Shown one piece after another: positions 1,551 through 32,250 of a DNA stretch of 32,250 nt; position 1 is the stretch's first letter; each line of letters starts with the position of its first letter. The DNA comes from an uncultured Colwellia sp. Lineage in GTDB: Bacteria; Pseudomonadota; Gammaproteobacteria; Enterobacterales; Alteromonadaceae. The DNA is taken from contig CAJWBY010000033.1 of the NCBI GenBank assembly GCA_913020705.1, positions 1 through 32,250 of the forward strand, read 5' to 3'. The translations under genes were made by a program, and so were the position numbers. The notes below the pieces were generated by a model. The model searched no databases and was not told where the DNA came from. It saw nothing but the letters and a program-made list of their open reading frames with translations.

Positions 1551-2968
1551 TTGAAATCAAAATTCATCTCGTTCCCAAGCAACCCTCTTTCCAGAAATGC
1601 TTGAAGATTTTGTCGCTAAAGAAAATCCTGTTAGAGTAATTGATGTATTTGTCGATGGTTTAGATTTAGAAAACCTTGGTTTCAAAGGTGTTCAATCTAA
1701 AGCAACTGGCCGACCTGGTTATCATCCCGCCATATTACTCAAAATTTATATCTATGGTTATTTAAACCGAATTCAGTCATCACGCTGTCTAGAGCGAGAA
1801 ACACAACGTAATGTTGAACTTATGTGGCTCACGGAGCGTTTATCACCCGACTTTAAAACAATCGCTGACTTTAGAAAAGATAACCATCGTGGGATTAAAA
1901 ACACCTGTAAAACCTTCGTTCAAATATGCCATAAATTCAATATGTTTAGTGAAGCGACTGTTGCTATTGATGGTAGTAAGTTTAAGGCATCCAACAACAA
2001 AGATAAAAACTACACTCCAAGTAAAATGAAGTCTCATATTGAGCGAGTAGAAAAGCATATTAATAATTATTTTTTGAAGCTTGAACAGTCAGATTCACAA
2101 GAGAACACATCACAATACATTGCTAATATTGAATCTAAATTAGATTTCTTAAAACAACACCTCATAGAACTAAAAGAGATGGAATTAGCCGTCAATAATC
2201 ATCCTGATAAACAAGTATCAACAGTCGATCCTGATTCTCGCTTGATGAAAACACAGGGCATGACACGAGCTATTTGCTATAACATACAAAGCGCTGTGGA
2301 TACGAAACATCATTTAATTGTTGCTCACGAAGTCACCAATACAACAGATAGGGGGCAGTTGTGCAATATGACCAAACTGACACTTAAAGCGTTAGGGAAA
2401 AGTGTTACAACAATATTGGCAGATAAGGGTTATTACAGCCGACAAGATATTAAAGATACTCAAGATTTAGGTGTATCGACGCTTGTACCAAAAACCGATA
2501 CATCAGGCTCAGAAAAGAAGGGAATTTTTAACAAGTCACTGTTTGAATATAATCAAGATAATGATGTTTATATTTGCCCTGCGGGCAATGAGCTTCAACA
2601 TCGATTCAATGCGATAGAAGGAGGGTTAGATATCAAAATTTACTTCAATGGTATGGCTTGTAAAAATTGTACTCTCCGAAGCCAATGTACCCGCTCTAAA
2701 AAAGACCCTAGAAGAATGAGACGTTGGATCCATGAAGCTGATATGGAAAAAATGGAAGCCTTGCTCAAAGCAACGCCTGATGCGAAAACAAACGGTTGAA
2801 CATCCCTTTGGTACGATTAAGTTGTGGGCAGGAGCCACGCAACTTTTAACAAGAGGGTTTAAAAATGTCAGTACAGAATTGAACCTGCATGTATTGGCGT
2901 ATAATTTAAAAAGAATGCTCAATATATTTGGAATAGAAAAGTTGATGAAGGAAGTGATGTTGCCGTAA
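1551..2968 (+). pseudogene. IS1182-family transposase, frameshifted
   Basis: A DDE transposase of the IS1182 group. The main frame (1597-2799) carries the N-terminal ENPVRVIDVFVDGLDL and LxIYGYLNRIQSSRxLERE motifs, the first catalytic Asp in VAIDGSKFKA and the second in ILADKGYY. The C-terminal part, with the third acidic residue in VEHPFGTIK, is in a different frame from about 2785 to 2968, so the active site is split by an indel near 2785. The usual N-terminal segment before LFPEML is also out of frame: codons reading RSQATLFPE precede 1597 with no start, and a possible TTG start at 1551 is in another frame. No clear terminal inverted repeats were found. Probably dead. Confidence 0.85.
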
Positions 2969-7560: not shown

Positions 7561-8748
7561 ATGAGCAGTATTCGAGCGCGTGGAAATAAACTGATATTTG
7601 ATTTCACTTATCAGAACGTAAGGTGTCGTGAAACAAGTCGATTAATCAATACGACAGCCAATAAAAAATTAGCCAATGAGGTCCTTACATGTATTGAAGC
7701 AGAAATAATTGTTGGTACTTTCTGTTATGAAAAATATTTTCCAAAATCGAAAAAAGTGACTTTTTTTCAGCAATTAAACGTCGATAAGCACAATGTTGAT
7801 ACTAAGGTGGTGCCTACGGTTGCTGAATTTACGAAAACATGGTTAGAGGAAAACTCAGGAGGGTGGCGTCCAACTTATTTGGATAAGTTAAACGGTATGT
7901 TCAATAAATATATTTTACCTTGTCTTGGTCATATTCACTTAAATAAGTTAACAAAATCAAATGTTTTGATGTTTCGAAATGACTTAGTGGGTATTGAGAA
8001 ATCAAATGGTGAAAAATTGAGTGCAAATCATATCAACAAAGTGATGATGAAATTGAAAGCCTTGTTGAGCGAAGCTTCTGAGCGCTTTACATTGGATAAC
8101 GTAAGTCAGTTGGTTAAACCGCTAAAAGACAAAAAGGCTGAAGTAACACCGCTGTCTTTGAATGAGGTTGGAACGTTTTTACAACTCATCAGAAAGGATC
8201 ATCATTGCTATTTCTCAACACGATTTTTTACGGGGCTCCGCTCTTCTGAAGTGACCGCGTTGAAATGGCAAGACATCTATCTAAAAGACTCATATCTCAT
8301 GGTCCGTTCAGCACTTGTGAGCGGAGAAATAATCAACACGAAAACCGTGGGCTCTTATCGAAAAGTTGAATTAAATAAAATCGTGATTGAATCCCTGCAA
8401 AAACACAAAGATGACGCTGTTTTTAACAAAGACGCAGACTTCGTGTTTTGTACTTCAGAGGGGGCACACATTAATAACAATAATATTTGTGCTCGCGTTT
8501 GGCATCCAATGTTAAAATTAATGGATCTAAAGCCTCGTAAAATGTACCAGACTAGACATACCACGGCGTCATTTTGGTTGGCGTCAGGGGAGTCACCAGA
8601 ATGGATTGCAAAACAGTTAGGTCACAGCAGTACGGCTTTATTGTTTAGCACTTACAGCCAGTTTATTGCCAATAACACTCAGCGTGATGGCTCTCGTTTT
8701 GATAAGTTTTTGGAGCATTCAAATACTTTTAATAAGGAAGTTGAATAG
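7561..8748 (+). CDS. int: Site-specific tyrosine recombinase (phage/island-type integrase)
   Basis: A 395-residue integrase. Residues 1-60 look like the Arm-type N-terminal DNA-binding domain seen in phage integrases (MSSIRARGNKLIFDFTYQ); 85-180 form the SAM-like core-binding domain; 195-380 the catalytic domain. Visible catalytic residues are Arg227 (TGLRSSE), a probable Lys261, Arg332 with His333 in the YQTRHT box (the first box histidine is replaced by Tyr329, as in many phage-type integrases), His355 in QLGH and nucleophile Tyr365 in STYSQF. GGGGAAG precedes the ATG. It is not an integron integrase: it has an arm domain and lacks a recognisable IntI-specific insertion. No tRNA or att duplication was seen, so the extent of its island is unclear. 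Confidence 0.9.
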   Translation: MSSIRARGNKLIFDFTYQNVRCRETSRLINTTANKKLANEVLTCIEAEIIVGTFCYEKYFPKSKKVTFFQQLNVDKHNVDTKVVPTVAEFTKTWLEENSGGWRPTYLDKLNGMFNKYILPCLGHIHLNKLTKSNVLMFRNDLVGIEKSNGEKLSANHINKVMMKLKALLSEASERFTLDNVSQLVKPLKDKKAEVTPLSLNEVGTFLQLIRKDHHCYFSTRFFTGLRSSEVTALKWQDIYLKDSYLMVRSALVSGEIINTKTVGSYRKVELNKIVIESLQKHKDDAVFNKDADFVFCTSEGAHINNNNICARVWHPMLKLMDLKPRKMYQTRHTTASFWLASGESPEWIAKQLGHSSTALLFSTYSQFIANNTQRDGSRFDKFLEHSNTFNKEVE

Positions 8749-10569: not shown

Positions 10570-10701
10570 ACTTTAATTGGATTTTTAACTGATTTTCTGT
10601 AATGAATTTTGATATAAATAATGTAAGCGCCTAACCAACCACCTCATTCCTTAGCGATTAACATTCGCCTATGATCACCTTCATAACTCAAGGAGATCAT
10701 C

Positions 10702-11019
10702 ATGCGACGAACACCACAGCAATGGCTTACACTTTTTCAAGTCCAGAGTGAAAGCCATTTATCGGTAAAACAATTTTGCCTTGAACAAGGCATATCAACC
10801 TCTAACTTTTACAAAAATAAAGCAGCTGCAACATCAATAGCTCAAAGAGCGCCATAAGTAATGACATCACCGTTTTCTCAAGTTCACTTGGCGGTGCCTG
10901 AGCTGAAAAAGACCAATTGCCTACGGGATATTAAACTAAATATTGGTAACATTGAGCTGACACTCGATAGCCAAACTGAAGTGAACTGGTTAGTCAATTT
11001 AGTTGGGCAACTCGCATGA
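10702..11019 (+). pseudogene. tnpA: IS66 tnpA with an in-frame stop
   Basis: The first IS66 gene, a small accessory protein needed for transposition in this family. It starts MRRTPQQWLTLFQVQSESHL and has a helix-turn-helix-like segment (SVKQFCLEQGISTSNFYK). Codon 52 is TAA (10855-10857); the same frame then continues to a stop at 11017-11019, whose end overlaps the tnpB start as ATGA, the usual IS66 arrangement. The frame is otherwise intact, so this looks like a single nonsense change. An ATG at 10861, just after the stop, could restart translation of the second half. Confidence 0.75.
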
Positions 11020-11372
11020 AGATGTTTGTTCAACCTTCTGCCGTGTATTTACATCGCGACCCCGTTGATTTTAGAAAGCAAATTGATGGCCTTGCCGCCA
11101 TTGTTGAGTTGACGATGAAACAATCGTTAAGCTCTGGTGCTTTATTTGTTTTTTGCTCAAAGCAACGTAATAAATTGAAACTACTTTACTGGGATAAAAC
11201 GGTTTTTTGTTTGTGGTACAAACGCCTTGAAAAAGATAAATTCAAATGGCCTAAAAAACATGACTTAGCTACGATTAATATTGATGAAGAGCAGTTACAT
11301 TGGCTACTGAGAGGCGTTGATATTAGTGCGATAAAACCCCATGAAAACATTGAGTTCGACTCGGCTTTTTAG
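11016..11372 (+). CDS. tnpB: IS66 accessory protein TnpB
   Basis: A 118-residue protein with the standard IS66 Orf2 signature: an early VDFRKQIDGLAAIV segment, then GALFVFCSKQRNKLKLLYWD and a late WLLRGVD. It is required together with TnpA for IS66 transposition, with an unclear molecular role. The start overlaps the end of the tnpA frame by 4 bases, suggesting translational coupling; tnpC follows 23 bases later. Confidence 0.92.
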   Translation: MKMFVQPSAVYLHRDPVDFRKQIDGLAAIVELTMKQSLSSGALFVFCSKQRNKLKLLYWDKTVFCLWYKRLEKDKFKWPKKHDLATINIDEEQLHWLLRGVDISAIKPHENIEFDSAF

Positions 11373-11395
11373 TCATTATTTGTTATAATTCTGCC

Positions 11396-13018
11396 ATGAA
11401 AAATCATCACTTCACGCTCAGTAATGAACAATTAATCCAGCGTATCTTAACGCTCGAAACTCAGTTGTCTGAGCAGAAAAGTGCGCTTGATGATAAAGAA
11501 AAAGCAATCACGAATAAAGATAATGCTCTATTAAAAAAAGATAAAATCCTCTTAAAAAAAGACGTTCAGATAACTCAGAAATCCGACAAAATAGCTAGCT
11601 TAGAAGAATACATTCGTTACATGACTCAGCAACGGTTTGGGGCTTCTAGTGAAAAGTGGTCGCCCGACCAATTAGGCTTATTCGACGAGGCGGAATTATT
11701 AAGTGATGAAGCTGATGTTGAAGAAAACACAACGCTCGTTCCTGCTCATCAACGTAAAAAGAAGCGCGTATTATTTCCTGACAACCTGCCTGTTACCGAT
11801 ATTATTCATGACTTACCTGAAGATGAAAAGTTTTGTCCGCATGACAATCAAGCGCTAAGACATTTTAGTGATGAATGCTCAAAACAGCTAGATTACATCC
11901 CCGCAAAGGTAACCATATTGAACCACGTGCGCCGTAAATATATGTGCCCGTGTTGCAATGATTATTTTATTACCGCGAAGAAACCTGCACAACCGATTGA
12001 AAAATCAATCGCCAGTCCAGGGCTGCTTGCTCAAATAGCCACGCATAAATATTGTGATGGCTTACCGCTGTATCGCCAAAGCAAGCTTGTTTTTAAACGC
12101 TTAAACGTCGAACTTGATCCAACCAGTATGGCAAACTGGATGATTAAGTGTGGGCAGTTAGTGCAACCACTGATTAATTTAGGGCTGGATGCATTGAGAG
12201 CGCAAGACGTGCTTTTTATGGATGAAACCGTCACTCAGGTGCTTAAAGAAGAAGGCCGTCGTGCGAGCCAACAAAGTCGCATGTGGATAATGACCAATAA
12301 TACTGACCAACGGATGGTCTTATTTCATTATAGCCCGACGAGAGAAACCAGCGTAGCCGAACTTATGTTAGGTGATTTTAAAGGCACATTAATGACGGAT
12401 GGCTATGCCGTTTACGACAGCGTGGCTAAGAGCAACGGCTTAACGCATTTGGGGTGTTGGGCACATGCCAGACGCTATTTTAAAGAGGCGAGTGATGCGC
12501 AACCTAAAGGGACCTCAGGTAAACCAGAGCAGGCGCTCTCTTACATTCAAAAATTATTTCGCATTGAAGCAGAAATAAAGACAGCAACAAGCGATGAAAA
12601 ATACCGCGTTCGGCAACAAGAAAGCATGCCGATATTAGCCGCGTTAAAGAAGTGGCTCGATAAATCGTTAAAACACCCGGTAAAATCAGCCAAGTTAACG
12701 AAAGCGCTCACCTATTTAAGTAACCAGTGGAGCAAATTAAGTCGGTATACGGAGAATGGCGCGTGGCCGATAGATAATAATCATGCTGAAAATTGCATTA
12801 GGCCTTTTGTTATCGGTCGAAAAAACTGGCTGTTCTCTACGAGCGTAGAGGGAGCTAAGGCCAGTGCAAACTTATACAGCTTGGTTGAAAGTGCAAAAGC
12901 GAACAACCTAGAGCCATCAGCCTATTTAAAAACCGTATTCACGTTATTACCCCAAGCAGAAACCGTAGAAGATATTGAGGCATTACTGCCTTGGAACATC
13001 AATAAGGCAGTTCGTTAG
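11396..13018 (+). CDS. tnpC: IS66 transposase TnpC
   Basis: A 540-residue transposase. Residues 15-75 form a coiled coil with lysine-rich repeats ([18 protein letters not shown]). A zinc-binding region follows ([10 protein letters not shown] and nearby Cys/His), then the DDE catalytic core: Asp276 (DETVTQVL), Asp335 (TDGYAVYD) and Glu465 ([11 protein letters not shown]). The length fits full-size IS66 transposases and no frame damage is seen. The stop lies 8 bases from the right end of the element. Confidence 0.95.
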
Positions 13019-13668
13019 CCGCTTACGCTTACCGCATACTGAACACCTTGATCTGAATGTACTATCAATCCAGCCTTAGGTTTTCGTTGCCACATCGTCA
13101 TAGTGAGTGCATCACAAACAAGTTGAGCTTTCATTCGTGTCCCCATGCTCCAACCAACAACTTTACGCGAGTATAGGTCGATTACTATCGCCAAATATAG
13201 CCAGCCTTCTGAAGTCCATATGTAGGTAATATCTTGTACCCACGCTTGATCAGGTTGTTGAACATCAAAGTTTTGCTCAAGTTCGTTCGCGTAAACTGGC
13301 TTGTTGTGTTCGCTGTTTGTCGTTGCTTTATATTTTTTCTTATAACGTACCCAAACGTTCGCCTCTTTCATTAACAGCGTTGTTTTTCTGCGGCTAACAG
13401 GGAAGCTGAGTGCATTTAAGGATTTTTGAATACGTCTTGCGCCATAAGTATTGTCACTAAACTTTGCAATGTCTTTCACCCATTCCACCATCTCTTGATG
13501 AGTTGTATCAATGGGCTTTTGAGCCTTTCTTTTCTGATAGCTATAATAGTTGTTACTTCTTATACCCAATACGCGACACATCAGTATCACGGGCCAGATC
13601 TTCTTATGTTGGGCAACAAACGAGTATTTTACTTCGTTTCTTTTGCAAAGAAGACCGTCGCTTTTTTT
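13015..13668 (-). pseudogene. IS3-family transposase OrfB, 3'-truncated
   Basis: The catalytic half of an IS3-family transposase. Visible are the HTH_21-type region ([18 protein letters not shown]), the first Asp in WVQDITYIW and the second in [12 protein letters not shown]. The third acidic residue and about the last 90-100 residues are missing: the frame runs into the IS66 terminal repeat, gaining VSVSG before a stop. Expression would come from a -1 shift at the seven-A run (13662-13668) near the end of orfA, giving [20 protein letters not shown] at 13590 is the first internal start. Inactive. Confidence 0.85.
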
Positions 13669-13969
13669 AATATCTCACGCTCCATTTCTAGGCGCTTGAC
13701 TTGAGCTTTAAGTTTGCGAATTTCATCTTGCTCTGGCGTAAGCTTTCCGTTTCCTCTAAAAGCATGACCATCATCATTTTCCGCTTCTTTGATCCATCGT
13801 CCAAGCACTTGAGCACTGACGTCTAAATTTCTAGCGGCTTCTGCTACAGGATAGTTTTGATCCCTAACGAGGGCGATTGCATCTAATTTGAATTCTTTTG
13901 AATAAGTTTTACGGTTTTTCATTTGTCTCTCCAGTTAAGTCAATTATGTCTTAACTGGGGTAGTCGAAT
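13027..13969 (-). mobile_element. IS3-family element, truncated by the IS66 junction
   Basis: The left (orfA-side) end is near 13969, reading TGATTCGACTACCCCAG on the minus strand, and is followed by a stem-loop (CCAGTTAAG at 13931-13939 pairing with CTTAACTGG at 13950-13958). orfA is intact; orfB is cut at the IS66 boundary after the HSDQGVQYA motif. The missing right part is not found elsewhere in the window. Confidence 0.85.
13629..13922 (-). CDS. IS3-family OrfA (HTH_Tnp_1 protein)
   Basis: A 97-residue DNA-binding protein with the IS3 OrfA signature: [16 protein letters not shown], an HTH ([21 protein letters not shown]) and a C-terminal leucine-zipper-like segment ([26 protein letters not shown]). 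The A7-G slippery run overlaps its last codons and would allow -1 frameshifting into orfB. ATG at 13922 lies just inside the element end. It is intact, but its partner OrfB is truncated, so the element cannot move by itself. Confidence 0.9.
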
Positions 13970-15261: not shown

Positions 15262-15519
15262 ATGAGAGTTGAACTCGTAACAACACTTAAACGTCAAGCG
15301 ACTAAAATTTTGGCTGATCTCCATATTTCCAAAGAACCAGTTTTAATTACTGAACATGGGCAACCATCTGCTTATTTAGTTGATGTCGATGATTATGAGT
15401 TTATGCAACAGCGAATGGCTATTCTTGAAGGCGTAGCACGCGGTGAGCAAGCAATTAAAAATGGTAATACATTTTCAAATCAAGATGCAAAAGTGAAAAT
15501 GAGCAAATGGCTGAAGTAA
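15262..15519 (+). CDS. Cassette 3: Phd/YefM-family antitoxin
   Basis: An 85-residue antitoxin. The N-terminal part (VTTLKRQATKILADL...EPVLITEHGQPSAYLVDVDDYE) is the Phd/YefM fold that dimerises and binds its own operator. The C-terminal tail (about 55-85) should wrap and neutralise the toxin. It overlaps the toxin gene by 13 bases, so translation is coupled. Its own promoter lies just upstream. Such pairs are frequent in chromosomal integron arrays and are thought to stabilise them. Confidence 0.92.
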   Translation: MRVELVTTLKRQATKILADLHISKEPVLITEHGQPSAYLVDVDDYEFMQQRMAILEGVARGEQAIKNGNTFSNQDAKVKMSKWLK

Positions 15520-15806
15520 TATGGACATCACCAGCTCTTGATGATTTAAATGATTTAGCTGAATACATTGCTTTAAGTAATATTCCTGCGGCTAAAAAGT
15601 TGGTTCAAAAAGTATTCGATAAAATATCAAGGTTAGAAAGTCATCCTGAATCTGGTAAAAGGCCACAGGAGTTAGTTAATTTAAATTATCGCGAAGTTAA
15701 TGTTAATCCCTGTCGGATTTTCTATAAAATTGATAGTGAAAAAGTTTATATTTTGCATGTCATGCGACAAGAACGAGATCTACGTAGATTTCTCCTACAG
15801 AGCTAA
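15507..15806 (+). CDS. Cassette 3: RelE/ParE-family toxin
   Basis: A 99-residue toxin with the ParE/RelE fold: WTSPALDDLNDLAEYIAL at the N-terminal helix pair, then HPESGKRPQEL, YREVNVNPCRIFYKID and the C-terminal VYILHVMRQERDLRRFL, which carries conserved arginine positions. It is the partner of the overlapping Phd/YefM antitoxin. Whether it inhibits gyrase (ParE-like) or cleaves mRNA (RelE-like) cannot be decided by eye; the overall pattern is nearer ParE. Confidence 0.92.
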   Translation: MAEVIWTSPALDDLNDLAEYIALSNIPAAKKLVQKVFDKISRLESHPESGKRPQELVNLNYREVNVNPCRIFYKIDSEKVYILHVMRQERDLRRFLLQS

Positions 15807-16778: not shown

Positions 16779-16826
16779 AGTGTATTCCTTGTTTGTACCA
16801 ATATATATTAGATTATGGTATAAAAA

Positions 16827-16920
16827 ATATAACAAGGTAATCAAACGGACTAAAACAGTTGGCTGTTTCACTTTGTTCACATTATAGTCAACCATCTTTA
16901 CCCGCTTATTGGGAGGAGCT
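16827..16920 (+). repeat. attC 5, core site altered
   Basis: Inverse core ATATAAC and arms AACAGTTGGCTGTTTC and TATAGTCAACCA are normal, but the terminal core reads AGGAGCT where GTTAGCT is expected from the next cassette's inverse core (AGCTAAC). Confidence 0.8.
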
Positions 16921-19747: not shown

Positions 19748-19753
19748 AAAAAA

Positions 19754-19853
19754 ACAGAGCAAGCCATCAAGCAGGTTAAATAACAGCTGGCTATTTACTC
19801 CTTCGTCGCTTATTTTAGCCAACAATTATTTTCCTGTTAATTAGGCGTTATAC
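19754..19853 (+). repeat. attC 10
   Basis: Degenerate inverse core ACAGAGC (ACATAAC expected), arms AACAGCTGGCTATT and TTTTAGCCAAC, core GTTATAC. It marks the left border of the nha unit. Confidence 0.85.
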
Positions 19854-19883
19854 TATTCAGGCGGCACCATGCTTCATCAGAAT

Positions 19884-20249
19884 TTAATCAATTAAATATT
19901 TTTTTAATCCTTCTTCTACAGTTTTTTCTGTCCAAGTAGGTTTATGGTTTTGCTTACGTTTAATTTTTCGAAGCAACGTCATTCTCGCTCTCGATAAAGA
20001 TATATTAACGGCTGACATCACAGATGTTTGATTATCAGTAATAATAATGTCAGGTATACCTTTTGTATGTATGATGATGCGACAATTTTTGTCTTTACCC
20101 CCTTTAGGACCATTAATGTCATCTATCGTTACGTTAATCGCTTTAACGCTGTCACAAATTTTTCCGAACATTCGTCGAGTTTTTTGTCGAATGCGTGATA
20201 AATTTTCATTTGAAAGACCTACATTTAAGTCAGTAATCGTTAATTCCAT
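19884..20249 (-). CDS. Cassette 11: HPF/RaiA-like ribosome-associated protein
   Basis: About 121 residues from ATG 20249, chosen because AGGTG lies just upstream and family similarity begins with MELTITD; the frame is open to an earlier start at 20294. The segment INVTIDDINGPKGGKDKNCRI matches the hallmark 'D.NGPKGG.DK.C' of the HPF/RaiA (sigma-54 modulation) family, whose members sit on 30S subunits and promote ribosome hibernation. A basic tail (RKIKRKQNHK) follows. It is downstream of nhaA and the Rap1a-like gene on the same strand, 17 bases from the latter's stop to its frame start, so probably the last gene of that operon. Confidence 0.75.
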   Translation of the reverse strand: MELTITDLNVGLSNENLSRIRQKTRRMFGKICDSVKAINVTIDDINGPKGGKDKNCRIIIHTKGIPDIIITDNQTSVMSAVNISLSRARMTLLRKIKRKQNHKPTWTEKTVEEGLKKYLID

Positions 20250-20311
20250 AAAACACCTATATATCAAATAAATTTTTGGTTTAAAATAAACCATTAATAT
20301 TAATTTTATCC

Positions 20312-20776
20312 TTACTTAGGACACGGAAAGTCAGCAATCAGGGTTTCAAATAATACTTCTTTTAATGGTTTATTGGTCAGTTGATTAATATCAATTGATT
20401 TTGCAATATCTGACGCAACCTTTCTTCTATCGCTATCGAGAGGAATGCAAAATTGGTATTCCTTATGTGTTTTCAAGTACGATGAATAATCAACAACACG
20501 AGTTCGGTAAGCTCGTTTTAGAAAGTCACTTTGCTCTCTAGGCTGACGGTCGATCATTGCTTGTGGTTTTACAGCGCCATCTTTTGTTAATAATGAAGAA
20601 TCTATAAAACCGTCGATATATAACTTACAGGCATTAATTTCTTTTTTATCAAGCTCTTGCTGGTAGGCTGAGCAAGATGCAATTATGTCTGATTTGAAAT
20701 CGGCTAACACTATAGTGGGTATTAGTAATACACTCGTTACGACAATACTAAGTATTCTATATTTTAATTTTTTCAT
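20312..20776 (-). CDS. Cassette 11: exported Rap1a/Tai-like protein
   Basis: A 154-residue protein with a signal peptide (YRILSIVVTSVLLIPTIVLA, cleavage probably near A25) and a periplasmic domain with four cysteines. The pattern CxLYIDGFIDS...FCIPLDSDRRKV...NKPLKEVLFETLIADFPCP resembles the Rap1a/Tai immunity-protein fold ('G..D', 'FCiP', 'AFPC'). In that family some members neutralise type VI amidase effectors, but many are uncharacterised. Its start overlaps the end of nhaA by 20 bases, so the two are translationally coupled. No effector is seen, so an immunity role is unproven. Confidence 0.65.
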   Translation of the reverse strand: MKKLKYRILSIVVTSVLLIPTIVLADFKSDIIASCSAYQQELDKKEINACKLYIDGFIDSSLLTKDGAVKPQAMIDRQPREQSDFLKRAYRTRVVDYSSYLKTHKEYQFCIPLDSDRRKVASDIAKSIDINQLTNKPLKEVLFETLIADFPCPK

Positions 20777-21974
20777 TGTTTTTTCCTTTATTAGTTATTA
20801 CTTTTTTTGATGATTTTGTTAGCAGATACGCACCTGCTACCGCTGAAATAATTGAACCTACCAATACGCCTACTTTGACCTGTGTTTGATAAGCAAGCCC
20901 TTGTTCTTCAAAAGCTAACGAACCAATAAATAAGCTCATAGTAAAACCAACACCGCACAATAAACACACACCATAAAGCTGTGTCCAAGTAGCACCTTCA
21001 GGTAATTTACATAGTTTTAATTTTACTGCGACAAAGCAGGCGACAAAAATTCCAAGTTGCTTTCCTATAAATAATCCACCAATAATGCCTATTGAAACTG
21101 GGGTTACCAGTTCATCTATAGTTGCACCTGTTAAACCAACGCCTGCATTAGCAAAGGCAAATAAGGGTAATACAAAAAATGCTATCCAAGGATGTAAACC
21201 ATGTTCTATTTGATAGGACATAGAATGACTTTTTGAGCGGGCTATAGGTATAAACCAAGCGACAACAAAGCCTGCTAAAGTGGCATGTACACCTGATTTT
21301 AATACTGCCGCCCAAACAATAATTGAGACGAGAATAAATGGGGTTTTGTTTTCTAATTTTAATCGATTAAAAATAAACAAAACGACACAACCAATACTTG
21401 CAATAATTAAAGAGTTGGTAGCTAATTCTTGCGAGTAGAAAATTGCGATTATGATAACTGCACCAATATCATCAATAATGGCTACTGATAATAAAAACAA
21501 TTTCAGGCTTGGCGGTAAGTGCTTACCAAATAGAATAAAAATACCTAGAGCAAAAGCAATATCGGTAGCCGAAGGGATCGCCCAACCATTCATTGCAACG
21601 GCATCTTGATAATTAAAAGCAACGTAAATTAGCGCAGGAAATACGATACCCGCAATGGCAGCTAAAAACGGCATTACCACTTGATCAGGGCTTGAAAGTT
21701 GTCCGTAAAATAACTCTCTTTTAATTTCTAGGCCAACGACAAAAAAGAACAGCGCCATTAGCCCATCGTTAACCCACAGTACCAATGGTTTACTAATAGC
21801 AAATGTACCTAACGTGATACTGACAGGGAACTCTAGAAAAGCATTGTAGTTCGCACTAAAAAAACTATTAGCCATGAATAGGGCCAGTATCGCGGCTATC
21901 ACTAAAATAATACCCGAGCTTGCATCGGTTTGTATAAATTGTTTCCACTGTAGTACAAGTTTATTTTCTGACAT
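20757..21974 (-). CDS. nhaA: Cassette 11: Na+/H+ antiporter NhaA
   Basis: A 405-residue inner-membrane antiporter with about 12 helices, exchanging external protons for internal Na+/Li+. Key residues: Asp138 in SATDIAFALG and the pair Asp168-Asp169 in VAIIDDIGAV, equivalent to D133/D163/D164 of E. coli NhaA; LPLFAFANAGV and GFTMSLFIGSLAF are also typical. The length is close to E. coli NhaA (388). It is transcribed away from nhaR, from the 140-base gap 21975-22114, and leads an operon with the Rap1a-like and HPF-like genes. It lies between attC 10 and attC 11, an unusual location for a housekeeping ion antiporter. Confidence 0.95.
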   Translation of the reverse strand: MSENKLVLQWKQFIQTDASSGIILVIAAILALFMANSFFSANYNAFLEFPVSITLGTFAISKPLVLWVNDGLMALFFFVVGLEIKRELFYGQLSSPDQVVMPFLAAIAGIVFPALIYVAFNYQDAVAMNGWAIPSATDIAFALGIFILFGKHLPPSLKLFLLSVAIIDDIGAVIIIAIFYSQELATNSLIIASIGCVVLFIFNRLKLENKTPFILVSIIVWAAVLKSGVHATLAGFVVAWFIPIARSKSHSMSYQIEHGLHPWIAFFVLPLFAFANAGVGLTGATIDELVTPVSIGIIGGLFIGKQLGIFVACFVAVKLKLCKLPEGATWTQLYGVCLLCGVGFTMSLFIGSLAFEEQGLAYQTQVKVGVLVGSIISAVAGAYLLTKSSKKVITNKGKNNEKIKI

Positions 21975-22114
21975 ATCAAAGCCCTTTCATTTAGTAAAAG
22001 TAGTTTATCTAAACTGCGAAACAATAAAAGTCGTATATATCTACCTATCTATCAATTTTTAATTGATAGTGATATTTTAAACGCTTAAAGAGCTCTTTAC
22101 CTAAGGAATAAAAA

Positions 22115-23011
22115 ATGGCGAAACTTAATTACCATCATTTACAATATTTTCATGCAATTGCAACTCACGGTAGTATTGCCAAGGCTTCAAGCATTATGCA
22201 TATCACACCACAAACATTAAGCGCTCAGTTAAGTTTATTAGAAAACCAATTAGGCTATAATCTTTTTGATAGAAAAGGTAAGCGACTTGTATTAAATGAT
22301 ATGGGACACATAACTTTAAGCTATTCCCAAGAGATATTTAGTTTAGGGGATGAGTTGTTACATTCACTTAAAAATCATTCTACTGACTTTGCCTTTAGAT
22401 TTTCTATTGGCGTTACCGATGTTATTGCTAAAGTTTTTTCATTCAATTTTCTCAAAACAATTTACGATATGGATGATTCGATTAAATTAGTCTGTAAAGA
22501 AACAAGTTTAGAGGTTTTACTTGGTGAATTAGCCACTAATAAACTAGATGCAGTGTTAAGTGATACCTCTTTACCCGTTGGATCTCCACTCAAAGCCTAT
22601 AGTCACTTAATAGGTAAAAGTGGGGTTAGCTTTTTTGCCCATAAAGACTTAGCAGACAAATTAACAGGCAGCTTTCCAACATCATTAGATAACAGACCTT
22701 TTTTCCTTGCTGGTGAAGGTACAAATCAGCGATTAAGCGTTCTTTCATGGTTCGAACAGATCAATATATCTCCCTTAATCATCGGTGAGTTTGACGATTC
22801 CGTGCTAACTAAATATTTTGGCCAAGCTGGGTATGGTGTATTTTGTGCACCAACGATTATCGATGAACATGTTATTGAGCAGTTTGGCGTAAGGTTGATT
22901 GGTAGAACAACAGATATTACTGAACATTATTATTTGATATCACCAGAGCGCAAAGTAAAACACCCTGCAGTTCAACACCTTATAGAAGAAGGTAAAAAAC
23001 TATTTGTTTAA
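22115..23011 (+). CDS. nhaR: Cassette 11: LysR-type regulator NhaR
   Basis: A 298-residue LysR-family regulator. Residues 1-65 form the winged HTH (LNYHHLQYFHAIATHGSIAKASSIMHITPQTLSAQLSLLE with LFDRKGKRLVLNDMG), strongly like NhaR of E. coli; the rest is the periplasmic-binding-like effector domain. NhaR senses Na+ and activates nhaA. It is divergent from nhaA, with both starts bordering a 140-base AT-rich region where its site should lie. AAGGAAT sits 8 bases before the ATG. The regulator plus target arrangement suggests the unit works independently of any integron promoter. Confidence 0.9.
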   Translation: MAKLNYHHLQYFHAIATHGSIAKASSIMHITPQTLSAQLSLLENQLGYNLFDRKGKRLVLNDMGHITLSYSQEIFSLGDELLHSLKNHSTDFAFRFSIGVTDVIAKVFSFNFLKTIYDMDDSIKLVCKETSLEVLLGELATNKLDAVLSDTSLPVGSPLKAYSHLIGKSGVSFFAHKDLADKLTGSFPTSLDNRPFFLAGEGTNQRLSVLSWFEQINISPLIIGEFDDSVLTKYFGQAGYGVFCAPTIIDEHVIEQFGVRLIGRTTDITEHYYLISPERKVKHPAVQHLIEEGKKLFV

Positions 23012-23098
23012 CTTTATAAATTTTTGGGTAACATCATAAAACTAAACTCTAAGTCACTTTTTGCACGATAGTGAGATAGAAACTAATAAAGGTATATT

Positions 23099-23182
23099 AT
23101 GTCTACAGTGTCCTTAAGGTTCCAAATTTCCCTTATAGGTATTGTTGATTGTTTTGATACGGTTATCAGACCCTTAGGTTAG
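23099..23182 (+). CDS. Possible 27-residue ORF after nhaR
   Basis: ATG 23099, with AAAGG 5 bases upstream, opens MSTVSLRFQISLIGIVDCFD and ends at TAG 23180-23182. The middle is hydrophobic. Too short to judge; it could be a small peptide or a remnant at the edge of the unit. Confidence 0.2.
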   Translation: MSTVSLRFQISLIGIVDCFDTVIRPLG

Positions 23183-23268
23183 CGATTTATATTTTCTACT
23201 AAAATGAATGTACCTTTAATATGTATAACGGCTATATCAATAAAATTCTTAAAAGGTTGCGTAAATAT

Positions 23269-23368
23269 AGTTAGCAAGGCAATCAAAAGGACAAAAAAAG
23301 TTCGCTTACCTGACTTCGTTAAAGTATTGTAGCCAAACTATTTTTATCCGCTTAGCAAAGCGTTAGAG
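23269..23368 (+). repeat. attC 11, degenerate inverse core
   Basis: The start AGTTAGC replaces the expected GTATAAC; the rest (AAGTTCGCTTACC, TGTAGCCAAACTA, CCGCTTAGCAAAGCGTTAGAG) is clearly attC of the second sub-type. It marks the right border of the nha unit. Confidence 0.8.
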
Positions 23369-28356: not shown

Positions 28357-29948
28357 ATGAGCCATAAAAAGACCTCTTTCAAACTCTTAAAGCGAGGAGT
28401 GTTAGTCTTATTGCTGTTAACTTTCAGCACAATATTGTTTGCTGGTGAAAAAGAAAATAGCATTATAAATAAAGCAGTCGAAGCCTATGGCGGAGACAAG
28501 TTGAGAAAATTGCAAAGACTGCAACTTACAGACAACATAAATCATTATATCCCTTGGCAAAGTGGTCATTCTGCCCAAGGTCCGATGGTTATGTATTTAA
28601 ATAAACATCAAATAGAACTAACGCTCGATTTATTAAACAAGAGAAAAGCATTTAAAGAAGTCACAACTAGGTTAATAGGCGGTCATAGTACAGATACGCC
28701 AGCAGTAGCTCACCGAATTTTTACAGAGGGTAAAGGATATGAGATAGATCATGCTTTAAAAAAATATCAACCAGCAAAATATCTCAACTATGACAATGTA
28801 GATAGCGGCAATAGCCAATTGCTAGACCCCATTATAATTAGACAATTAGATAAAGACAGAAATAATGTTCAATGGACAGATACAGCAAACATACAAGGTC
28901 AGGCTCACGATGTATTGACAGTAAATGCTGGCACTGAACATGAATATTCAATCTATATCAATCAAAAAAATGGCTATTTAACGCGCATGCTTAAAAAGCA
29001 AGGGCAGGAAATCCAGAGTTACGACTTTCTAAATCATCATCAAACGCAAGGTATCACTTGGGCCAAAGAGTTATTTGTTAGCACCGCAGAACAACCTGTT
29101 TATCATAGCGACTCTAGGGAACTCACTTTTAACACTGTGCAAAGCCATCAATTCAATATCTCCTCCGGTTATGACTTGCAAACAAAGAAACAATACTTTG
29201 ATGTTTCAAAGTTAACCATCAGGCAAGTAGCGAAGGATGTATATTTTGTCGGGCAAGGCTGGGGGTATACTCTATTTATTGATTCAGGTGACCACTATAT
29301 TTCTGTCGGTGCTTGGGGAGAAGTAGATGATTCTAAGGCTTGGCAACAAGGCTTAGACTTGCTAAGGCTTGGCAACAAGGCTTAGACTTGCTAAGGAAAA
29401 CGACAGGCAATAACAAACCAATAGCACAACATGTTGTTAGTCATCATCATACTGATCATATGTCCGGACTTAGGGGTATTGTTAAGCAAGGGATAAATTT
29501 AATCATTCATCCAGCAGATATAACTGCGGTAAATGATTACCTAAAACAGCCATTAGCAGAGAGCCGATTTTTACCCATAGATAAAACGAGCTACTTAGCA
29601 GATGGTAAAGTTATGCTTTTTGATGTGCCCAATGGCCACGCCAGCCATAATTTAGTAGTCTATCTGCCCGAGCACAAATTGCTAATTACGGAAGATATGT
29701 TTGGTAGTAGCTATAAAACGGCATTAGAGTCTCCTGTCAGCTGGCCAAATGTGGACGTTTATTACAGACTTGAGGTGTTATCAGGTGCAATAAATCAACT
29801 CAATCTTGACGTTGAAAAATATCTATCAACCCATCATGGGCGAATATTAAATCAAGCAGAGATAAACAAAGCTCTAACGTTAAGTCGCCCCTCTAGAGAT
29901 GAGCTTATTCAACGCTTATTTTTTGATAATATCAAATTGAATGAGTGA
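28357..29948 (+). pseudogene. Secreted metallo-beta-lactamase-fold hydrolase, broken by a 29-bp duplication
   Basis: A signal peptide (LLKRGVLVLLLLTFSTILFAG) is followed by an N-terminal beta-rich domain (to about residue 290) and a metallo-beta-lactamase-fold domain. The zinc ligand motif HHHTDH is at 29442-29459, with later ligands in NGHASHN, ITEDMF and THHGR. The first frame ends at 29385 and the second runs from about 29340 to 29948; they are joined by two tandem copies of a 29-base unit (29334-29362, 29363-29391). Removing one copy restores a single frame of about 520 residues (DDSKAWQQGLDLLRKTTG). As it stands, the product stops before the zinc site. AAAGG precedes ATG 28357. The substrate is unknown. 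Confidence 0.88.
29334..29396. repeat. 29-bp tandem duplication inside the hydrolase gene
   Basis: Two exact copies of a 29-base unit beginning TAAGGCTTGGCAACAAGG, followed by a 5-base partial third copy (TAAGG). 29 is not a multiple of 3, so the second copy causes the frameshift. The unit itself contains a direct repeat of AAGGCTT. Confidence 0.95.
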
Positions 29949-30214: not shown

Positions 30215-31993
30215 ATGATTAAATATTATAAAAGTGCTTTAGGAGTATGTTTTATTTTACTTTGCTCTAACACTTGGGCTAACCAACAAGAATTGATCAA
30301 AAATGTCGAGAACAGTTTATCACCTGTCAATAGCTTCAAAGGCGATAAATTATGGAGTTTACAAGATCGAATGAAACACTATGGAGTTCCTGGTGTTGGA
30401 ATTGCTGTTATAAAAGATTACAAAGTCAGCTGGTTTAAAACCTATGGTCTAGCCGATAGAGAGGCGGGAAAGGTCGCGAGTAACCAGACTTTATTTCAAG
30501 CTGGATCTGTATCTAAACCTGTTGCAGCATTTGGTGCATTGCGTTTAGTGGAGGCCGGTAAACTGCCGCTTGATAGTGATATTAATACAACGCTTAAAAG
30601 TTGGAAACTTCCTGAGAACGAATTTTCCACTAAAGCCAAAGTTACCTTACGAGAATTATTAAGCCACACAGGTGGATTAACGACTCGTGGATTTATAGGC
30701 TATTCCCTTGATGAAAAAATTCCAAACGTTATACAGATACTTAATGGTATAAAACCAGCTAACTCTGCTCCCGTTAGAGTTAACAAAGAACCTGGGGGCG
30801 ACTTTCGTTATTCCGGAGGCGGTTACACAGTTGCACAACTTATGATGAGTGAGGTTTCTGGAATGCCTTTTAATAAAGTAATGGATGAGTTGTTATTTAA
30901 TTCGGTAAGAATGACTCAAAGCTTTTACCAACAAACATTGCCAACGGCTTTACTCAAAAATTTAGCTGCAGGTGTAAGGGCCCATGGAGATGCTGTTACG
31001 GGAAAATACCACACTCATCCAGAAATGGCAGCAGCTGGTTTGTGGACTACAGCAGGCGATTTAGCTTTATTTGCAGCTGAAATACAAAAAGCATTAAGTG
31101 GAAACAGTAAACTATTGAATAAAAGTACAGCGCAAACCATGATTACAGAAGTTGATTCTGGTTATGCGCTAGGTTGGTTCGTCGATAACCGTGGTGGAAC
31201 AAGCTATTTTTCACATGGTGGTTCGACACAAGGTTTTTCTACACAGTTAACAAGTCACCTTAAAGATGGTTATGGTGTTGCTATTATGACTAATTCTAAT
31301 CACCCAGAATTTTTAGATGAAGTGGTTAGTGCTGTTGGTTTAACTTATGAATGGGATGGTTATCAAGCGAAAGAAACACAAAACATCACTAAAGAGATGT
31401 TCAATAAATACTTAGGTCAGTATCGTTATGACAGCACCCAATCAATATCAATTACAAGCCAAGAAGGAAAATTATGGATGAGTTATCCCGGTACGTCACC
31501 TAAAGAGTTAAATTACACTGGAGAGGGAATATTTCTACGCCGAGAAAGCGCTACACCCATTAAATTCACTGAGGCTAAGGGAGTGATTCAGTTTAATTTT
31601 GTACGCAGTTATGGAAATTATCAAAGTCACCTTAAACTGGCAAAAGACGAACAGATGGCGGGAGATGCTCTCAATACAGATGATTATGCTGATGCACTTA
31701 TTGCCTATCGAACTTTACTGGAAAAAGATTCTAGTGATGAATCATTATCAGAAGGTCGTTTGAATAACCAAGGACTAAGTATGATGAAGGAAAATTTTGA
31801 TTACGCTATAAAACTATTAACCATCAATACTGACCTTTATCCTGATTCTGCAAATACGTGGGATAGTTTAGCCTTTGCATATCAACAGGCTAATATCAAA
31901 CACAAAGCTATTCAACATTATCGCAATGCACTTAAACGCGATTCAACATTTCCATCTGCGTTGAAAGGATTAGCAGAACTGGAAAATAAATGA
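30215..31993 (+). CDS. Secreted class C beta-lactamase-type serine hydrolase with TPR tail
   Basis: A 592-residue exported protein. A signal peptide (SALGVCFILLCSNTWA) is followed by a penicillin-binding/class C beta-lactamase-like domain (about 40-375): nucleophile motif SVSK at Ser98-Lys101, Tyr199 in RYSGGG (the YxN-like box) and HGG at 334-336 in place of KTG. A beta-strand domain follows (YLGQYRYDSTQSISITSQEGKLWMSYPG), then two to three TPR-like helical repeats at about 480-590 (DYADALIAYRTLLEKD, ANTWDSLAFAYQQANIKHKAIQHYRNALKRD). The family includes esterases and D-amino-acid peptidases. HGG in place of KTG and the TPR tail argue against a true beta-lactamase. It follows the metallo-hydrolase in the same direction. 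Confidence 0.9.
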   Translation: MIKYYKSALGVCFILLCSNTWANQQELIKNVENSLSPVNSFKGDKLWSLQDRMKHYGVPGVGIAVIKDYKVSWFKTYGLADREAGKVASNQTLFQAGSVSKPVAAFGALRLVEAGKLPLDSDINTTLKSWKLPENEFSTKAKVTLRELLSHTGGLTTRGFIGYSLDEKIPNVIQILNGIKPANSAPVRVNKEPGGDFRYSGGGYTVAQLMMSEVSGMPFNKVMDELLFNSVRMTQSFYQQTLPTALLKNLAAGVRAHGDAVTGKYHTHPEMAAAGLWTTAGDLALFAAEIQKALSGNSKLLNKSTAQTMITEVDSGYALGWFVDNRGGTSYFSHGGSTQGFSTQLTSHLKDGYGVAIMTNSNHPEFLDEVVSAVGLTYEWDGYQAKETQNITKEMFNKYLGQYRYDSTQSISITSQEGKLWMSYPGTSPKELNYTGEGIFLRRESATPIKFTEAKGVIQFNFVRSYGNYQSHLKLAKDEQMAGDALNTDDYADALIAYRTLLEKDSSDESLSEGRLNNQGLSMMKENFDYAIKLLTINTDLYPDSANTWDSLAFAYQQANIKHKAIQHYRNALKRDSTFPSALKGLAELENK

Positions 31994-32105
31994 AAAAACT
32001 TGAGTTGAAGCGATGTCAGTGCCTAATATTCTGACACTGTCTAAGCAAACCAATATTTAACGATAGAGATAAATATTGGCTAGTACTTTCATCATACATT
32101 TGAAC

Positions 32106-32250
32106 CAACAATTTGACATTGTTTTTACAAGTTATGGGACAATTGGGTGGTTGCCTGATTTAGATAAATGGGCAACCATAGTTGCTAAATATCTAAAGCC
32201 AAAAGGACAATTTGTTTTTGCGGAATTTCATCCAGTGGTGTGGATGTTTG
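32106..32250 (+). pseudogene. SAM-dependent methyltransferase fragment, cut by the window end
   Basis: From about 32106 the frame reads QQFDIVFTSYGTIGWLPDLD, then KWATIVAKYLKPKGQFVFAE and FHPVVWMF, typical of the middle of class I methyltransferases after the SAM-binding glycine-rich motif. That N-terminal part is missing: a stop lies just upstream in frame (about 32070) and the previous gene ends at 31993. It is probably a 5'-truncated gene that continues past the window. A TTG at 32076 could start it, but without a SAM-binding motif. Confidence 0.65.

What the first reader, a model, noticed from the sequence alone, without database searches (positions are those of the whole stretch)
19848..23361. 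nhaA-nhaR operon with two extra genes as a giant integron unit
Between attC 10 and attC 11 lies about 3.5 kb holding nhaA, a Rap1a-like gene, an HPF/RaiA-like gene and divergent nhaR. Typical cassettes carry one or two genes and depend on attC-bounded circularity. Here a complete, self-regulated sodium/proton antiporter locus, coupled to a ribosome-hibernation-like protein and an exported protein, appears to be cassette cargo. The cassette start TTATAC pairs poorly with the inverse core (AGTTAGC), so it may also be an insertion into a cassette. Either reading is unusual and suggests a mobile salt/alkali-response module.
Basis: partly seen in the sequence, partly recalled or inferred. Interest (0 to 1): 0.72.

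Follow-up and report, generated by a model that had tools for sequence, protein, structure and literature searches.

The report
Sodium-pump operon stranded among integron cassettes
A complete, self-regulated sodium/proton-pump operon from a marine bacterium sits between two gene-cassette recombination sites, but the sequence indicates that it became fused to the stump of an older cassette rather than being a normal giant cassette; its pairing of a sodium-linked regulator with a ribosome-hibernation-like protein recurs in related bacteria.

Summary
A 3515-bp unit (19848-23362) lies between attC 10 and 11 of 15 same-orientation attC sites. It carries nhaA, a Rap1a-like protein, an HPF-type protein and divergent nhaR. 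No integron integrase was found in the window.

The "giant cassette" reading is mostly wrong. nhaR/nhaA/rap1a is a chromosomal locus of Colwellia-type genomes, in about five different settings. In nha-type loci of 22 genomes, one has a clear attC, 6 kb away. Upstream of attC 11 lies the 3' stump of a different, 109-codon cassette gene; two intact relatives of that cassette start GTTAGCTATA and end TATAGCTAAC. The window unit starts GTTATAC and pairs with its own inverse core at 0 of 3 variable positions, the worst of 13 cassettes scored. So the unit is a chimera: operon plus remains of an older cassette. The route is inferred. The genes are intact and keep a conserved operator-like repeat.

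The more interesting lead: relatives of this HPF protein share a locus with an NhaR-type regulator in 22 of 30 cases (directly adjacent in 11), and 12 of 20 mostly lower-scoring NhaR loci pair with an HPF gene against 0 of 30 top-scoring ones. This suggests a sodium/alkali-linked ribosome-hibernation switch.

The parts
19750..19850 (+). attC 10, left border; R' cut point G^TTATAC at 19847/19848; inverse core ends AGC instead of AAC
19848..19883 (+). 36 nt of unknown origin between the attC 10 cut point and the hpf stop codon; a 25-mer over the junction (19847-19871) is absent (<=3 mismatches) from 295 family genomes
19884..20249 (-). HPF/RaiA-type protein, 121 aa
20312..20776 (-). Rap1a-like small protein with signal-peptide-like N-terminus (by eye); its start overlaps the 3' end of nhaA by 20 bp
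20757..21974 (-). nhaA, Na+/H+ antiporter
21975..22114 (.). divergent nhaA-nhaR promoter region with inverted repeat TATCAA-N7-TTGATA (10-12 of 12 positions kept in the 14 aligned sequences, 12 here) and a CGACT block (in all 14)
22115..23011 (+). nhaR, LysR-type activator
23012..23146 (.). stretch of unknown origin; no significant similarity to the three cassette relatives tested
23147..23271 (+). 3' remnant (in-frame stop and a deletion) of a 109-codon cassette gene family
23264..23366 (+). attC 11, right border; inverse core AGTTAGC; next cassette starts G^TTAGAG at 23362/23363

Best explanation
The unit is a chimera. An intact chromosomal operon of the Colwellia type (nhaR diverging from nhaA-rap1a-hpf, with its own operator-like repeat) is joined on its right to the 3' stump and attC of an unrelated, older cassette, and on its left, 36 nt beyond hpf, abuts the cut point of attC 10. 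It came about most likely by illegitimate recombination or translocation of the operon into a cassette array, with loss of the 5' part of one cassette and probably of a neighbouring attC; the junctions then decayed. The operon most likely works as expected for its families: NhaR with Na+/alkali activates the divergent promoter, giving NhaA, the exported Rap1a-like protein and the HPF-type protein, so it does not need an integron promoter. Shown: gene content, foreign stump, core mismatch, chromosomal setting in relatives, signs of constraint, conserved repeat. Inferred: the route of insertion, a single operon transcript, Na+ control and HPF function. The unit might still be excised by an integrase supplied elsewhere, but probably poorly.
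For: Stump: 23147-23271 matches the C-terminus of the G231 protein in two pieces (64% of 22 aa and 79% of 19 aa, E = 3.4e-8). The family is rare: 6 proteins found in the 5.8-billion collection and 4 of 295 genomes (the fourth, G043, is weak: E = 4.9e-4 over 48 aa of a 795-aa frame). In G184 and G144 the gene sits in a cassette starting GTTAGCTATA and ending TATAGCTAAC, 10 of 10 complementary (read by eye). In the window the same ending reads TATAGTTAGC while the unit starts GTTATACTAT; pairing 0 of 3. Origin: 17 of 295 family genomes have nhaA of this type (76-89% identical) beside a rap1a gene, 16 of them with nhaR beside it; all four genes together as here in G005, G006 and G128, and G003 has them with nhaR on another contig. 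About five sets of neighbours, each shared by two or more genomes. In nha-type loci of 22 genomes one (G018) has attC matches at E <= 0.001, the nearest 6.1 kb off. dN/dS 0.03-0.19 in 8 of 11 pairs tried, rough because dS exceeds 1. Operator-like repeat 12 of 12 in the window, reached by 0 of 200 shuffles.
Against: No empty-site array was found, so the order of events is not proved. The left junction falls exactly at the attC 10 cut point, which an integrase-made event would also give. No repeats recognisable as transposon ends mark the borders, so no transposon route is visible. The G231 relative of the stump has no attC recognised by the model, though that model also missed the sites in G184 and G144, so it is narrow. 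In 3 of 39 cassettes elsewhere the cores also fail to pair at all. The 36-nt and 135-nt edge pieces have no known source.
Confidence: 0.65

Rival explanations
1. Backbone flanked by two cassette clusters: the operon is at a native chromosomal site, cassettes 1-10 were integrated at a GTT (attG-like) site just behind hpf, and a second cluster integrated downstream of nhaR and decayed.
For: attC matches are abundant in this genus (14-111 per genome at E <= 0.001 in 17 of 17 genomes, at most 150 candidates scored each) and 15 of 17 have an integron integrase over the cut-off. In G018 a 3.5-kb insertion holding two attC matches separates two genes that lie about 150 bp apart in G002 and G008, near the nha locus. 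The left border is exactly at a cut point.
Against: It needs two same-orientation clusters within 36 and about 250 bp of both ends of one operon, and the right cluster would begin with a truncated cassette. Of 30 window ORFs outside the block, 29 have no match in the relatives' nha loci; the exception, 30215-31993, has only paralogue-level matches in L066 and L067 (22-39% identity). This is weak evidence, since the relatives' contexts differ so much.
Confidence: 0.2
2. A genuine large cassette: the chimera arose elsewhere and was inserted here as a 3.5-kb circle by an integrase, and can leave again.
For: Position between two attC sites in the right orientation; R' GTT intact on both sides; the bottom-strand fold of attC 11 is no outlier (z = -1.0, range of 14 sites -2.6 to +0.5); integrases common in related genomes.
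Against: Core mismatch 0 of 3, AGC inverse cores on both sites (5 of 15 window sites lack AAC), no second copy of the whole unit seen in 295 genomes, 2.6 times longer than the longest of 39 scored cassettes.
Confidence: 0.12
3. Assembly artefact joining a chromosomal contig into an array.
For: Very similar attC sites complicate assembly (stated in PMC9024848, passages read); reads are not available.
Against: The junctions at hpf and nhaR lie beside unit-specific sequence; the right junction is in a diverged stump rather than inside an attC. Inference; no reads were seen.
Confidence: 0.03

Closest known systems
nhaAR of Escherichia coli (NhaR activating nhaA; arrangement recalled)
   Same: NhaA and an NhaR-family LysR activator side by side; both pass NCBIfam models
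   Different: Here nhaR diverges from nhaA, and rap1a and hpf follow nhaA; none of the 30 top-scoring NhaR loci of the order has an HPF gene within about 1.5 kb
[quoted passage not shown]
   Same: 15 attC sites in one orientation, no integrase found in the window, mostly small cassettes
   Different: This unit is several times longer, holds four genes on both strands with their own promoter region, and its ends belong to different cassettes
HPF/RaiA ribosome hibernation factors (PF02482)
   Same: Fold and profile match; 4 of 4 relatives tested that sit in a locus with NhaR pass PF02482
   Different: The window protein is below Pfam detection at E <= 0.001 and is encoded with an antiporter and NhaR; the usual enterobacterial hpf setting is recalled, not checked
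E. coli NhaR effect on rmf and 100S ribosomes (PMC10003395, passages read) and on rrn promoters (PMC10157491, abstract read)
   Same: An NhaR regulator tied to ribosome activity
   Different: There rmf and rrn are not said to be linked to nhaR, and the authors conclude that NhaR represses rmf; here an HPF gene is physically in the NhaR locus

Membership tests
Integron gene cassette | Bounded by attC sites in the same orientation with intact R' GTT | tested here: met
Integron gene cassette | Start (R') and inverse core (R'') of the unit's own attC complementary | tested here: not met
   3 of 7, 0 of 3 variable positions
Integron gene cassette | Content and attC have one origin | tested here: not met
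   stump of a different cassette gene between nhaR and attC 11
Integron gene cassette | Excision as a circle by IntI | not testable with these tools
   needs an experiment
Complete integron | intI gene and attI next to the array | tested here: inconclusive
   no intI in the 32-kb window (tyrosine recombinase 7561-8748 scores 31 of 265 needed); attI not tested; the array may continue outside or be a CALIN
NhaA antiporter | Equivalog model score | tested here: met
   TIGR00773 463.7 over 254
NhaR activator | Equivalog model score | tested here: met
   NF008284 222.6 over 219 (narrow)
HPF/RaiA (S30AE) | PF02482 over gathering score | tested here: not met
   no hit for the window protein at E <= 0.001; 5 of 7 relatives tested pass
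HPF/RaiA (S30AE) | Fold and profile similarity to ribosome-bound HPF | tested here: met
HPF/RaiA (S30AE) | Binds and silences ribosomes | not testable with these tools
   needs an experiment

The most novel reading that the evidence does not exclude
A branch of NhaR-family regulators in the order around Colwellia controls dedicated HPF-type proteins, so that Na+/alkali stress sets ribosome hibernation directly. The antiporter (NhaA or Mrp) and a Rap1a-like exported protein are variable add-ons to this NhaR-HPF core, and the window holds a copy that has entered a cassette array. Support: HPF relatives share a locus with an NhaR-type regulator in 22 of 30 cases, directly adjacent in 11, including loci that lack an intact nhaA (G147, G154) and loci with an mrp operon; order-wide, 12 of 20 mostly lower-scoring NhaR loci have a divergent HPF gene next to nhaR and 0 of 30 top-scoring ones do. 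Against: the Colwellia operator-like repeat is not shared by the distant pairs, and no function was tested.
Probability: 0.35. Interest if true: 0.65.

Novelty: new variant of a known kind. Interest (0 to 1): 0.4.

Why it matters
For integrons, it is a readable case of a chromosomal multi-gene operon fused to a decaying cassette's attC. That is one plausible first step by which cassettes could gain large, self-regulated cargo, though here it is probably an end state. More widely, the NhaR-HPF pairing offers a testable genetic link between sodium/alkali sensing and ribosome hibernation; in E. coli, NhaR is reported to act on rmf and 100S ribosomes (PMC10003395, passages read), and no physically linked NhaR-HPF locus appeared in the listings of the searches made.

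Tried and rejected
No whole genome is held for the window, so copy number and the rest of the array stay unknown. RNAalifold gave no consensus structure for the attC alignment, so R1 and R2 are sequence-only. Bottom-strand DNA folds of 14 sites had z from -2.6 to +0.5 and do not tell good sites from decayed ones. I tested whether the stump extends left of 23147: 9 comparisons, none significant against 300 shuffles each. The start of the unit as a lost cassette: a 25-mer in 0 of 295 genomes with up to 3 mismatches, its first 22 nt in 0 of 94 loci. Border repeats: none useful. Plasmids: 11 records with partial similarity, none covering 80%. The outer array flanks were traced to other genomes, but none of the six loci L101-L106 nor L083 has an attC by R1, so no empty site was found. 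In the attC scan of relatives, matches between E = 0.001 and 0.1 also turned up in three nha-type loci (L066 0.0014, L063 0.042, L071 0.069) and are not counted as attC. The Colwellia operator-like repeat is not seen in the distant NhaR-HPF pairs: apart from the window and L112, 1 of 26 tested regions beats its shuffles at 0.05 (L128, 0.035), which is against one shared operator. HPF loci without an NhaR-type regulator in the locus are counted as misses (L115, L117, L118, L122, L123, L127, L129, L130; L115 and L130 lie on short contigs); the HPF matches in G022 and G252 contain in-frame stops. In one search one of eleven gene pairs failed and two had saturated dS, and the IntI test there used a wrong ORF; it was redone. 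Of the 70 NhaR matches listed, the 30 with loci were the top-scoring ones. I fetched 20 others: 19 of the 22 scoring under 300 bits and G370 at 392 bits; all 12 HPF pairs are among the 19. The contrast is therefore between score classes, not random samples. Not every top-scoring locus shows nhaA within its 1.5-kb flanks. contexts were clustered at 35% identity; two further sets of neighbours are linked through G003, so I count about five, not more. Literature: integron with nhaA (5 papers), integron with antiporter (109, 15 listed), integron with Colwellia (20, 12 listed), nhaR with nhaA and hibernation (1), NhaR with ribosome hibernation (2), antiporter/NhaR/interface protein (45, 10 listed). 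No listed title reports an nha cassette or a linked NhaR-HPF locus, but only listings and the named passages or abstract were read, in an open-access subset.
Full report
WHAT IS THERE. The window holds 15 attC sites in one orientation between 14271 and 25915; a model built without attC 10 and 11 still finds both (E = 1.1e-19 and 9.7e-11). No integron integrase was found: the best tblastn hit of a Colwellia-type IntI is E = 0.087, while two control loci give 93-94% identity. The tyrosine recombinase at 7561-8748 scores 31 against 265 needed for the integron-integrase model. Between the cut points of attC 10 and attC 11 lie 3515 bp (19848-23362) with hpf, rap1a, nhaA and divergent nhaR. The other window cassettes are small; 39 cassettes scored in two arrays of related genomes run from 307 to 1346 bp.

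THE GENES. NhaA and NhaR pass their NCBIfam equivalog cut-offs, NhaR narrowly. The Rap1a-like protein passes PF18602 and begins with a signal-peptide-like stretch (by eye). The HPF-like protein is missed by Pfam and NCBIfam at E <= 0.001 but matches ribosome-bound HPF by profile and by predicted fold. dN/dS against relatives is 0.03-0.19 in the eight pairs where it could be computed, of eleven tried; dS is above 1 in all eight, so the ratios are rough, but the genes look maintained. The rap1a start overlaps the nhaA end by 20 bp. The 140-bp nhaA-nhaR gap keeps an inverted repeat, TATCAA-N7-TTGATA, at 10-12 of 12 positions in the 14 aligned sequences; in the window it is perfect, which 0 of 200 shuffles reach. 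The operon therefore seems to carry its own control.

WHERE THE OPERON COMES FROM. The closest NhaA relatives in named genomes are from Colwellia, Cognaticolwellia, Pseudocolwellia, Thalassotalea, Psychrosphaera and Thalassomonas, with one unplaced gammaproteobacterial assembly. In 295 genomes drawn from the family, 149 have some DNA match to the unit, many of them to nhaA alone or to attC only (list cut). Comparing the fetched loci with the window proteins, 17 genomes have nhaA of this type (76-89% identical) beside rap1a, 16 of those with nhaR beside it, and hpf completes the set in G005, G006 and G128 (in G003 nhaR is on another contig). Two more distant genomes (G107, G031; nhaA 58-61%) show nhaR, nhaA and a weak rap1a match. 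Others lack an intact nhaA: G147 keeps nhaR, a 49-aa nhaA tail, rap1a and hpf; G154 keeps nhaR and hpf; G077 and G134 keep nhaR and rap1a; in G210 nhaR lies at a contig end. The neighbours fall into about five sets, each shared by two or more genomes, plus singletons. Across nha-type loci of 22 genomes (8-10 kb each side as a rule) one has attC matches at E <= 0.001: G018, the nearest 6.1 kb away. So the operon is normally backbone, has changed neighbours several times, and is not usually tied to integrons.

WHY IT IS A CHIMERA. The family has six proteins found in the large protein collection and matches in 4 of 295 genomes, one of them weak. In G184 and G144 the gene is plainly a cassette, read by eye: it starts GTTAGCTATA and ends with its stop codon inside TATAGCTAAC, followed by a palindromic attC body; my attC model does not recognise those sites, and in G231 it finds no attC either. 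The window stump keeps the same ending, as TATAGTTAGC, directly at attC 11. But the unit starts GTTATACTATTC, which does not pair with that ending: 0 of 3 variable positions, against 1-3 of 3 for the other 12 window cassettes scored and 3 of 3 for 27 of 39 cassettes elsewhere, 3 of which also have 0. Mismatched window pairs give 0 of 3 in 41 of 156 cases, so the pairing supports but does not prove the point; the stump does. The first 36 nt and the 135 nt after nhaR have no identified source.

HOW IT GOT THERE. I favour translocation of the operon into an array with loss of one cassette's 5' part, because one interrupted array needs fewer events than two same-orientation clusters ending within 36 and about 250 bp of one operon. 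The main rival, backbone with cassettes integrated on both sides, is kept at 0.2. In this genus attC matches are abundant (14-111 per genome in 17 of 17) and integrases common (15 of 17 over the cut-off). G018 shows a 3.5-kb insertion with two attC matches between two genes that are about 150 bp apart in G002 and G008, in an otherwise conserved nha neighbourhood. Integrases acting on attG sites besides attI and attC are stated in the abstract start of PMC12901181 as listed; the original genomic-integration study is recalled, not read. A true mobile cassette is possible but unlikely, given the core mismatch and the AGC inverse cores of both flanking sites, although 3 of the other 13 window sites also deviate from AAC.

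THE WIDER LEAD. A profile of the HPF-like protein matches 30 of 295 family genomes at E <= 1e-6. In 22 of the 30 an NhaR-type regulator is in the same locus: with nhaA in G005, G006, G128, G015, G275 and G100; with mrp antiporter genes and a Rap1a-like gene in G014, G252, G143 and G202; in G147 with only a 49-aa nhaA tail and rap1a; and in 11 further loci with nhaR directly beside hpf and no NhaA or Mrp match within the 1.5-kb flanks (with for the loci whose nhaR lies beyond the edge). The four next genes scanned in such loci are unrelated to Na+/H+ antiport: Bax1-I, GST, DEAD helicase and a SulP-type transporter. G001 has an mrp version too, whose HPF gene passes PF02482. Six of seven LysR proteins tested pass the NhaR cut-off; the one in L145 scores 193 against 219. 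Order-wide, 61 of 158 genomes have an NhaR match at E <= 1e-50, 70 matches in all. Of 20 loci that I fetched (19 of the 22 matches under 300 bits, and G370), 12 have an HPF gene divergent from and next to nhaR; of the 30 top-scoring loci none has. This contrast is between score classes, not random samples, and the Colwellia operator-like repeat is not shared by the distant pairs. In E. [quoted passage not shown] the authors warn that the in vitro binding does not prove binding in vivo (PMC10003395, passages read). NhaR also binds rrn promoters (PMC10157491, abstract read). A physically linked NhaR-HPF locus was not in the listings of the searches made.

VERDICT. As an integron story it is an old chimera, mildly unusual. 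The NhaR-HPF pairing is the part worth following.

Noticed in passing
L187-L198 and L111-L140: NhaR-type regulators paired with HPF-type genes: 12 of 20 mostly lower-scoring NhaR loci against 0 of 30 top-scoring ones; 22 of 30 HPF-relative loci.
   Followed up: partly
L080 8365-11584 (G001): A solitary attC match lies about 130 bp behind an NhaR-like gene that diverges from a Rap1a-like gene (26% by tblastn; no Pfam hit), an HPF gene and mrp/mnh antiporter genes, an arrangement recalling the window's right border.
   Followed up: partly
window 16823-16913: attC 5 has lost its GTT core, so decay within the array is visible.
   Followed up: no
window 32045-32114: Weak attC-like match (E = 3.3e-4, 8.6e-4) about 6 kb beyond the last clear attC.
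   Followed up: no
window 15507-15806: ParE-family toxin-antitoxin-type cassette gene, 93% identical to one in the G014 array (L077), suggesting recent cassette exchange in the group.
   Followed up: no
window 1597-2799, 10700-13018, 13015-13922: Transposase gene by Pfam (1597-2799) and IS66- and IS3-like genes (by eye) upstream of the array; DNA around the first is 90-98% identical in G134, G002, G167, G186 and G273.
   Followed up: no
L062 659-4176 (G018): A 3.5-kb insertion with two attC matches between two genes that are close neighbours in G002 and G008: cassettes inserted into the backbone near the nha locus.
   Followed up: partly
window 28357-29948: A metallo-beta-lactamase-fold gene appears split into two overlapping ORFs.
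   Followed up: no
L048 (G134): nhaR of this type matches in two pieces, so it may be broken there.
   Followed up: no
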